Below, piece after piece: positions 45,776 through 47,992 of a DNA stretch of 64,000 nt (within the stretch, counting starts at the first letter, position 1; every line of letters begins with the position of its first letter). The stretch is from the NCBI GenBank assembly GCA_003215775.1, contig QCJW01000004.1:1-64000 (forward strand), read 5' to 3'. The position numbers were made by a program, and so were the translations under genes. This DNA comes from Prochlorococcus sp. AG-409-G20 (GTDB lineage: Bacteria > Cyanobacteriota > Cyanobacteriia > PCC-6307 > Cyanobiaceae). The notes under the pieces are model-generated. The model saw only the letters and a program-made list of their open reading frames with translations. It made no database searches and was not told the origin of the DNA.

Positions 45776-47068
45776 ATGAATCAAATTAATTGCCCTGAAT
45801 GTGGAAAGGTTTTTAAGATAGATGAGAGTGGTTATGCAAATATTGTCAAGCAAATAAAAGATGATGAATTTGAGAGTGAATTGAGTAAAAGACTGGATTT
45901 GGCTGAGCGAGATAAGATTAAATCAATTGAGATTGCTAAAAGAACTTTAAAAATGGAGATGCTTGAGTCTATTGCATTAAAAGATAAAAAATTGCAGAAC
46001 TTGCAAGCAAAACTAGAAGTAGCTGATGTTGAAAAGAATTTAGCAATAAATAAGGCAAAAGTTCTAGTCGAAAAAGAGCGTGACACACTCGCTTTTAACT
46101 TTGACAAGTTTAAAGCAAATACAGAAGCTGCTAAAAAACTTGCAATTAATGAAGCAGTTAGACAGTCCCAGAAAGAGCGAGACGAGATAAGAGCTAGCTT
46201 AGATAAGGCATTGTTAATGCAGCAGCTTTCTGAGAAAACTTTGAAAGAGAAATATGAATTTCAACTTAAAGACCGTGACCATGCTATAGAAAGACTTAGA
46301 GATATGAAATTAAGACTTTCTACTAAGATGATTGGTGAATCTCTTGAAAAGCATTGTGAGAATGAGTTCAATAAGATGCGGGCAACAGCTTTTCCTAAAG
46401 CTTATTTTGAGAAAGATAATGATGTTTCTAATGGAAGTAAGGGTGACTATATTTTCAAGGAAAATGATTCGTCTGGGACAGAGATAGTTTCAATAATGTT
46501 TGAGATGAAAAACGAAAATGATGCTACAGCTACCAAGAAGAAGAATGAAGACTTCTTCAAAGAACTTGATAAGGACCGTTTACAAAAAGGTTGTGAATAT
46601 GCCATCTTAATCTCCCTATTGGAGCTAGACAATGATTTATATAATTCAGGAATTGTAGATGTATCACATCGTTTCCCTAAAATGTTCGTTGTCAGGCCCC
46701 AATGTTTCTTATCAATAATAACACTCTTGAGAAATGCAGCAATGAAATCTCTTGAATACAAATCTGAATTAGAATTAGTGAAATCACAGAATATAGATAT
46801 TACTGATTTTGAAAAGAACCTTGAGTTATTTAAGACTGCATTTGATAAGAATTATTCTTTAGCCTCAAGAAGATTTGAATTGGCGATACAAGAGATTGAC
46901 AAGTCGATAGATCATTTGCAGAAAACAAAAGAAGCTTTAATTGGCGCAGATCGTAATCTTAGACTGGCTAATGATAAGGCTCAGGATGTTTCCGTTAAAA
47001 AGTTAACTAGATATAACCCTACAATGGCTGCGAAGTTCAAGGATTTGAAGGAAGATAAAGCTGCCTAG
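45776..47068 (+). CDS. DUF2130 family protein with long coiled coil
   Basis: A 430-residue protein. An N-terminal zinc-ribbon half motif ([10 protein letters not shown], residues 6-15) is followed by about 160 residues of predicted coiled coil (rich in Lys, Glu, Ala; e.g. [18 protein letters not shown]), and a C-terminal domain of about 190 residues with [30 protein letters not shown] and [14 protein letters not shown], which is the DUF2130 pattern and may be a restriction-like (PD-(D/E)XK) fold. Function unproven; the family is patchily spread in bacteria and often travels horizontally. The acid residues in the EMKNE motif fit a metal site. Confidence 0.8.
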
Positions 47069-47163: not shown

Positions 47164-47850
47164 CTAGCATAAAGCATAGGCCCAATTGACATAGCCATCG
47201 ATTTCTCCAAGCTGTCTTTGTAATCTTTTGCTATTTACTTTAATGATAATGCCATTAGTCGGATAGCTTTTGAAGAGTTTTCCTTCAGACCATAGATCTT
47301 TATATAGGTCCACCTCGTTAACATTTAATCTTGTATATTCATTTTCTGGAATTTCAAAAAGTAATTTCTTTAACTCTGTTAGTTCAGATAGATGGTTTAG
47401 AGTACTATTAATTATTTGAAAACAGCAAAGTTTTAATTGCGGTAGGTGTATTGTTTTATTTTTTAGGTAGTTTGATATAAAGTTTTTACAGGTTTCGGGA
47501 TTCAAATTATTGGAATAAAGTTGACCTCTGATCATAATATCTTTTTTTATAGGAATTGATAAAGGAATTATATTTGTAGATTTTAAAATCTCAATACTAA
47601 TAGAATATGATCGGTGAAATGCTTTTCTAAGAGAACCTTCTTGATAGACTAAAACTATTGATTCACCGATTATCTTTGGTTCAACTATTAATCTTGTATT
47701 GCCGAGTAAGTTTTCTTCAATCCATTTCTTATAGTAATCATTTGTATCAAATATTTCATTCTTTACTCTAATTCTAAACTCCTTTTTCGCATTCTCAATA
47801 CTAAGAGTGTGTAGGTTGTTTACTAGATGAATGTATTTATTATTCATCAC
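47164..47850 (-). CDS. Stand-alone, degenerate NAD-dependent DNA ligase (LigA) adenylation-domain homolog
   Basis: A 228-residue protein that matches only the nucleotidyltransferase domain of LigA. The adenylation motif KxDG appears as VEPKIIG (K59-I-I-G62), so the nucleophilic Lys is kept but the Asp is lost. RGDG is degenerate (HRSYS), RGEV is IMIRGQLY (Glu to Gln110), and DGVVIKV is TNGIIIKVNS with the Lys at 204 kept. The C-terminus ends WAYALC, just before the last lysine motif (AYKFP in ligases). No OB-fold, zinc finger, HhH or BRCT part follows. The Ia NMN-binding region may be present in residues 1-45. A functional ligase is unlikely; altered nucleotide binding or regulation is possible. 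AT-rich, not a normal core gene. Confidence 0.7.
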   Translation of the reverse strand: MMNNKYIHLVNNLHTLSIENAKKEFRIRVKNEIFDTNDYYKKWIEENLLGNTRLIVEPKIIGESIVLVYQEGSLRKAFHRSYSISIEILKSTNIIPLSIPIKKDIMIRGQLYSNNLNPETCKNFISNYLKNKTIHLPQLKLCCFQIINSTLNHLSELTELKKLLFEIPENEYTRLNVNEVDLYKDLWSEGKLFKSYPTNGIIIKVNSKRLQRQLGEIDGYVNWAYALC

Positions 47851-47992
47851 CTTCTCCTTTGTTAATCATTTACTTTAAGGATGAATATTATTCGGATATC
47901 TTTTTTCCTTTTTCTTACAATTTTTGATGAGTAAAATTTACTGATTTTATAGTTATGTCAATTATATCTTGCCAAATCTAATTTAAGGAATT

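What the first reader, a model, noticed from the sequence alone, without database searches (positions are those of the whole stretch)
47164..47850. Stand-alone, degenerate NAD-dependent ligase adenylation domain
The sequence shows a protein that ends just before the last lysine motif of LigA and keeps only the adenylation domain. The reactive Lys (K59 in VEPKIIG) and the distal Lys in GIIIKVN are retained, but KxDG has lost its Asp, RGDG is gone and RGEV is RGQL. Established knowledge: these residues hold NAD/AMP and are needed for ligase activity. Inference: the gene has been repurposed (nucleotide sensor, decoy, adenylyl-transfer to a non-DNA target) or is a decaying phage or mobile cargo. 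It sits in the accessory part of the window opposite the DUF2130 nuclease-like gene. This is the most unusual protein in the window.
Basis: partly seen in the sequence, partly recalled or inferred. Interest (0 to 1): 0.75.

Follow-up and report, generated by a model that had tools for sequence, protein, structure and literature searches.

The report
Dead stand-alone DNA-ligase-like protein
A small protein in this marine picocyanobacterium (Prochlorococcus lineage) is a DNA-ligase catalytic domain that stands alone and has lost its catalytic residues, yet it belongs to a family kept under selection, whose intact relatives sit on mobile elements and phages; some of these genes are listed as 'DNA ligase' in the literature.

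Summary
The ORF at 47164-47850(-) encodes the nucleotidyltransferase (NTase) fold of NAD+-dependent DNA ligase and nothing else; Pfam, PDB sequence, profile and fold searches agree. It keeps Lys59, Arg80 and Lys204 but has lost the S-L, KxDG-Asp, RGE-Glu, DGxxxK-Asp and motif-V Lys positions. It is not a broken ligA: it is intact, has a good ribosome site, and no ligase OB domain was found in the genome.

It is not unique. Relatives of 200-260 aa occur in many Prochlorococcus genomes, some Synechococcus-like ones and two viral contigs. Some keep every core catalytic motif up to motif V; these abut a tRNA-Pro site, overlap a tyrosine-integrase gene (ATGA), or in phage overlap rusA. Catalytic residues were lost at least four times. 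In the query's clade the catalytic columns are relaxed while a different set is fixed; four sampled members lack even the nucleophile Lys. The degenerate pair of the LLI-type genus evolves under constraint (median dN/dS 0.13 and 0.36); Yan et al. 2018 list such a pair as 'DNA ligase' genes.

Best reading: a selected, non-catalytic pseudo-ligase derived from a mobile-element NTase core; its ligand (DNA nicks or a nucleotide) is inferred. New variant of a known kind.

The parts
47164..47850 (-). Stand-alone degenerate NAD+-ligase NTase-core gene (228 codons from GTG 47850; probable start ATG 47847, 227 aa)
   Evidence: ORF; Pfam PF01653; fold
47854..47860 (-). Shine-Dalgarno-like AAAGGAG, 6 nt before ATG 47847
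   Evidence: sequence
47674..47676 (-). K59, position of the ligase nucleophile Lys (VEPKIIG), retained
   Evidence: alignment
47668..47670 (-). I61, position of the KxDG Asp, lost
   Evidence: Asp in all intact stand-alone relatives
47611..47613 (-). R80, position of the RGDG Arg, retained
47521..47523 (-). Q110, position of the RGE Glu (motif III), lost
47254..47256 (-). N199, position of the DGxxxK Asp (motif IV), lost
47239..47241 (-). K204, motif IV Lys, retained and invariant in the query's clade
47167..47169 (-). C228, last residue, at the motif V Lys position, lost
45776..47068 (+). Convergent DUF2130 gene; marks a flexible region shared with relatives of the query in other genera; not shown to be a functional partner
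   Evidence: distances

Best explanation
The gene encodes a non-catalytic pseudo-ligase. It descends from a stand-alone NTase core of NAD+-dependent DNA ligase that travels on phages and integrative elements of marine picocyanobacteria, and it is kept under selection in Prochlorococcus flexible regions. SHOWN: fold and homology, absence of the other ligase domains, loss of most catalytic residues in the whole clade, repeated loss within the family, purifying selection in the LLI-type relatives, and linkage of intact relatives to an integrase/tRNA-Pro site and to phage rusA. INFERRED: it acts by binding rather than by adenylyl transfer. The most likely ligand is a DNA nick, end or recombination intermediate, or a nucleotide, held by the retained NTase groove and the K204-x-N-S-x(3)-Q211 segment. 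It could modulate or compete with ligases of the cell or of its mobile elements. The confidence given here is for 'selected pseudoenzyme of mobile-element origin'; for the DNA/ligase-competition step alone I would give about 0.25.
For: Homology and fold. No ligase OB domain (PF03120) and no other PF01653 in the genome (genome 83% complete). Of seven core residues (K115, D117, R136, E173, D285, K290, K314; E. coli numbering from memory) the query keeps 3 and the query clade mostly 1-4, while intact relatives keep 7. Columns fixed at 100% in intact relatives (K59, D61, R80, R108, E110, D199, K228 positions) fall to 32-76% for their commonest residue in the query clade, while N12, T52, Q145, N152, L163, F193, K204, N206, S207, Q211 and L214 are 100% there. 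Tree: the query pairs with L005 (SH-aLRT 91) inside a degenerate clade next to intact L004 and L025; at least 4 changes of state. dN/dS in LLI degenerate copies is 0.13 (105 pairs) and 0.36 (325 pairs), against 0.16 in intact HLII-type copies. Mobile linkage: one intact copy overlaps an upstream integrase gene by ATGA (L035); intact copies abut the 44-bp 3' half of tRNA-Pro (L035, L050) or the whole tRNA-Pro (L036); viral contigs L051 and L120 carry it overlapping rusA. Ribosome site.
Against: No close relative of the query exists in the collections (best about 44-49%), so selection on the query itself could not be measured. Low dN/dS comes from the LLI relatives, and the very closest LLI 228-aa pairs are near 1. 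The query keeps Lys59, Arg80 and the motif IV Lys, so weak catalysis cannot be ruled out. Gene GC is 29% against 37% for the window, with little codon-position contrast. No ligand, partner or phenotype is known.
Confidence: 0.7

Rival explanations
1. A rewired adenylyl-transferase: the retained Lys59, Arg80 and Lys204 still take AMP from NAD+ or ATP and pass it to a protein, RNA or small molecule, using other acidic residues.
For: K59 is present in the query and in most of its clade (76% of 25 rows); K204 is invariant; selection acts on relatives.
Against: Asp of KxDG, Glu of RGE, Asp of motif IV and Lys of motif V are all lost in the query. Four members replaced the nucleophile itself with Ser or Asp, and two LLI members have Arg or Glu there. 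The NMN-binding Ia segment of intact relatives (YR-G...SD..FD) is missing from the query.
Confidence: 0.12
2. Decaying cargo: a remnant of a mobile-element ligase-like gene with no present function, caught before its frame broke.
For: Long branch in the tree (0.75), low GC, a mobile-element family, one relative with five stop codons (G134) and fragmentary copies.
Against: Full-length frames without stops at about 55% divergence in many genomes, constrained dN/dS in relatives, clade-specific invariant residues shared by the query, a strong ribosome site.
Confidence: 0.13
3. One subunit of a split DNA ligase of the T5 or PR1 phage kind, with a second gene supplying the OB and DNA-binding domains.
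For: T5-like phages split the enzyme (large subunit NTase + OB, small subunit HhH + BRCT), and the PR1 heterodimeric ligase is among the fold matches.
Against: In 17 genomes searched, including the window's, the only ligase OB domains lie in LigA-sized frames; the window's genome and the HLII-type carriers have none at all. No conserved neighbour across the family; catalytic residues lost in the query.
Confidence: 0.05

Closest known systems
NAD+-dependent DNA ligase LigA, adenylation (NTase) domain, PF01653
   Same: Fold, order of elements, positions of Lys59, Arg80 and Lys204, C-terminal WAxA segment
   Different: No Ia domain in the query, no OB, Zn, HhH or BRCT domains; Asp of KxDG, Glu of RGE, Asp of motif IV and Lys of motif V lost
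T5-like phage split NAD+ ligase (subunits A and B) and PR1 phage heterodimeric ligase (PDB 9hu3, 9i5i)
   Same: NTase carried on a polypeptide separate from most of the other ligase domains; phage setting
   Different: The T5-like large subunit carries an OB domain and is followed by the small-subunit gene; the cyanobacterial family ends at motif V and no partner was found
Two LLI-clade-specific 'DNA ligase' genes of Prochlorococcus NATL2A, 955315-954713 and 959226-959912 (Yan et al. 2018, PMC6102989, Table 2)
   Same: Same lengths (200 and 228 aa), opposite strands and about 3.9 kb spacing as the degenerate pair found here in the LLI-type genus g56
   Different: Listed there as DNA ligases and discussed with DNA repair; residue tests here show the g56 copies lack most catalytic residues. 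Matched by layout, not by sequence of that strain
Prochlorococcus ATP-dependent DNA ligase (PDB 6ras; PMC6698739)
   Same: Same NTase superfamily; distant fold match
   Different: A complete ATP-dependent ligase of another family; not an orthologue

Membership tests
NAD+-dependent DNA ligase (LigA, PF01653 and following domains) | Adenylation-domain fold and sequence similarity | tested here: met
   PF01653 45.4 bits against cut-off 27; Foldseek E 1e-13
NAD+-dependent DNA ligase (LigA, PF01653 and following domains) | KxDG motif with nucleophile Lys and Asp | tested here: not met
   K59 kept, Asp replaced by Ile61
NAD+-dependent DNA ligase (LigA, PF01653 and following domains) | Motif III Glu, motif IV Asp, motif V Lys | tested here: not met
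   Q110, N199, C228
NAD+-dependent DNA ligase (LigA, PF01653 and following domains) | Ia domain for the NMN half of NAD+ | tested here: not met
   No Ia region in the query; intact relatives keep a short form with Y, D, F, D
NAD+-dependent DNA ligase (LigA, PF01653 and following domains) | OB fold and downstream DNA-binding domains | tested here: not met
   Only PF01653 in the protein; no PF03120 in the genome
NAD+-dependent DNA ligase (LigA, PF01653 and following domains) | Nick sealing or AMP transfer from NAD+ | not testable with these tools
   Needs biochemistry
Split phage ligase (T5 or PR1 type) | Companion gene with the remaining ligase domains | tested here: not met
   None recurring near members; no OB domain outside full-length LigA in 17 genomes
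Picocyanobacterial stand-alone NTase family described here | 200-260 aa, NTase core only, ends at the motif V position, separate from LigA in the tree | tested here: met
   stand-alone rows form one side of a branch with support 100
Pseudoenzyme | Catalytic residues lost in a clade that is still under selection | tested here: met
   selection measured on LLI relatives, not on the query itself
Anti-phage defence proteins in PADLOC | Match to a PADLOC model | tested here: not met
   No match for the query, DUF2130 or intact relatives

The most novel reading that the evidence does not exclude
The intact stand-alone relatives are one-domain NAD+-dependent nucleic-acid adenylyltransferases or joining enzymes used by integrative elements and phages, working without an OB domain. 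The degenerate clade, including this gene, is the host's domesticated dead copy that interferes with them or with phage recombination.
Probability: 0.12. Interest if true: 0.8.

Novelty: new variant of a known kind. Interest (0 to 1): 0.5.

Why it matters
Every characterised DNA ligase that I know of uses an NTase plus an OB fold (own knowledge). This family comes in an intact form that ends at motif V, tied to mobile DNA, and in a dead form kept by selection in genomes known for streamlining, which makes two direct questions testable. Can an OB-less NAD+ NTase act on nucleic acid, and why does a minimal genome keep a dead one? It also suggests that annotations which count these genes as LLI-specific DNA ligases and discuss them under DNA repair (PMC6102989) need revising.

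Tried and rejected
Close relatives of the query by single-protein scans of genome and viral contigs: none. Whole alignment A1 as a viral query: no stretch conserved enough. Broken or split ligA in the same genome: rejected. Replacement of LigA by this protein: rejected, because several genera carry both and HLII-type genomes use ATP-dependent ligase. Defence-system model match: none. Conserved operon partner across the family: none; SRAP, DUF938 and DUF2130 recur near members only in some genera. Other cyanobacteria: in 292 genomes across the phylum the listed hits outside the family are all in long, LigA-sized frames, though the list is truncated. Draconibacterium and most viral hits turned out to be full-length ligases. 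Synechococcus phage S-CAM8 protein G8EY44: fold match only, not found with the sequence profiles. Papers on stand-alone NAD+-ligase adenylation domains: none found in the held library.

Full report
OBSERVATION. The ORF 47164-47850(-) is real and open. Its start is probably ATG 47847, because AAAGGAG lies 6 nt upstream. The protein matches one Pfam family above its cut-off, PF01653, at 45.4 bits against 27. A profile of the query and 33 relatives finds LigA crystal structures at E 5e-21. The AF2 model (mean pLDDT 88) matches LigA adenylation domains at Foldseek E about 1e-13. Aligned to the full-length LigA proteins of related genomes, the query keeps the nucleophile Lys (K59), the Arg of RGDG (R80) and the Lys of motif IV (K204). 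It has lost the S-L pair, Asp of KxDG (I61), Glu of RGE (Q110), Asp of motif IV (N199) and Lys of motif V (C228, its last residue). The E. coli numbers used for these positions are from memory; the columns come from the alignment.

NOT A BROKEN ligA. In the window's genome (1.5 Mb, 30 contigs, 83% complete) there is no other PF01653 and no ligase OB domain. A true ligA may lie in the missing part: most related genera have one. The sequence downstream is 95 bp of spacer and then the convergent DUF2130 gene.

A FAMILY, NOT A SINGLETON. In 201 genomes of the same taxonomic family, many carry stand-alone frames of about 200-260 aa at 30-47% identity to the query, often several per genome, distinct from LigA frames of about 700 aa that match only weakly. 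A named-genome scan shows that they are Prochlorococcus single-cell genomes. Two larger genomes, Synechococcus-like by size, carry intact ones (G044, G081). In 292 genomes across the phylum, every listed match outside the family is in a long, LigA-sized frame (list truncated). Two viral contigs, L051 and L120, carry stand-alone members.

TWO GRADES. Thirteen of 78 distinct stand-alone sequences keep all seven core residues and three keep six; the rest keep one to four. The intact ones also keep a shortened Ia region (YR-G...SD..FD) and end one or two residues after the motif V Lys. On a maximum-likelihood tree (quick search, SH-aLRT only) all stand-alones separate from LigA (100). The query pairs with L005 (91) inside a degenerate group beside intact L004 and L025, and the intact/degenerate state changes at least four times. 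Long branches make some inner placements unsure.

SELECTION. The LLI-type genus (g56) has two degenerate copies about 4-5 kb apart. Median pairwise dN/dS (Nei-Gojobori) is 0.13 for the 200-aa copy (105 pairs) and 0.36 for the 228-aa copy (325 pairs, the very closest pairs near 1), against 0.16 for an intact HLII-type copy. In the query's clade (25 rows, about ten of them from g56), columns that are invariant in intact relatives are relaxed: position 61 is 56% Ile, 80 is 64% Lys, 110 is 48% Val, 199 is 52% Asn, 228 is 32% Asn. Another set is fixed: N12, T52, I60, Q145, N152, L163, F193, K204, N206, S207, Q211 and L214 at 100%. Four sampled members have Ser or Asp for the nucleophile. This is the pattern of a pseudoenzyme with a new job, not of simple decay. 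The test was on relatives; the query has no close relative to test.

ORIGIN. Intact copies in g56 lie at tRNA-Pro: 37 bp from the whole tRNA in L036, and against its 44-bp 3' half in L035 and L050, with a large gene of an integrase-related cluster on the other side. That large gene itself had no Pfam or PHROGs match; it is linked to the integrase only through sequence clustering. The second intact copy in L035 overlaps by ATGA the end of a gene that does match an integrase (phrog_1, E 2e-15). In viral contigs L051 and L120 the gene overlaps the start of rusA, with a phage structural gene next and, in L120, terminase downstream. So the intact form travels with recombination genes. The DUF2130 gene is single-copy and lies within about 9 kb of a family member in genera g1 (window), g16, g4, g46 and g56. 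This marks a shared flexible region and does not by itself show a functional link.

LITERATURE. Yan et al. 2018 (PMC6102989) list two LLI-clade-specific 'DNA ligase' genes of NATL2A, 603 and 687 nt, on opposite strands about 3.9 kb apart. This matches the layout of the degenerate pair here. I matched by layout, not by that strain's sequence. No paper on stand-alone NAD+-ligase adenylation domains was found in the held library.

HOW IT WORKS. Most likely it binds and does not catalyse. Losing the acidic catalytic positions, the motif V Lys and the Ia region should abolish NAD+ adenylylation (established ligase chemistry; own knowledge). What is retained and fixed around motif IV (K204, N206, S207, Q211) points to a phosphate-bearing ligand such as DNA or a nucleotide; this step is inference. 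Competition or cooperation with ligases of the cell or its mobile elements is the reading I favour, at about 0.25. Rivals are a rewired adenylyl-transferase, decaying cargo, and a split-ligase subunit.

VERDICT. New variant of a known kind; interest 0.5.

Noticed in passing
Genomes G016, G066, G094, G116, G135, G151, G166, G178, G190 (genus g17): Nine complete or near-complete genomes, probably HLII Prochlorococcus (G116 has the length I recall for MIT9312), show no full-length LigA; all have a 444-452 aa ATP-dependent ligase frame, while related genera keep LigA.
   Followed up: partly
L051:7333-8058 and L120:56-775: Viral contigs with an intact 239-241 aa NAD+-ligase NTase core overlapping rusA, with no OB-domain gene seen in the contig.
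   Followed up: partly
L035:14749-16727: Tyrosine-integrase gene overlapping an intact stand-alone NTase gene by ATGA.
   Followed up: yes
L069:8729-10207, L068, L067: An SRAP (HMCES/YedK-like) gene lies next to or near family members in two genera.
   Followed up: no
HLII-type genomes, e.g. G116:C1:685501-689499: DUF2130 lies about 3 kb from a second, 546-559 aa ATP-dependent ligase frame in seven HLII-type genomes.
   Followed up: no
Synechococcus phage S-CAM8, UniProt G8EY44: Uncharacterised 193-aa cyanophage protein matches the query's fold (TM 0.71 on its own length) but not by the sequence profiles.
   Followed up: partly
L043 (G134:C26:6749-7399): A pseudogene copy of the family with five in-frame stops in one Prochlorococcus single-cell genome.
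   Followed up: no
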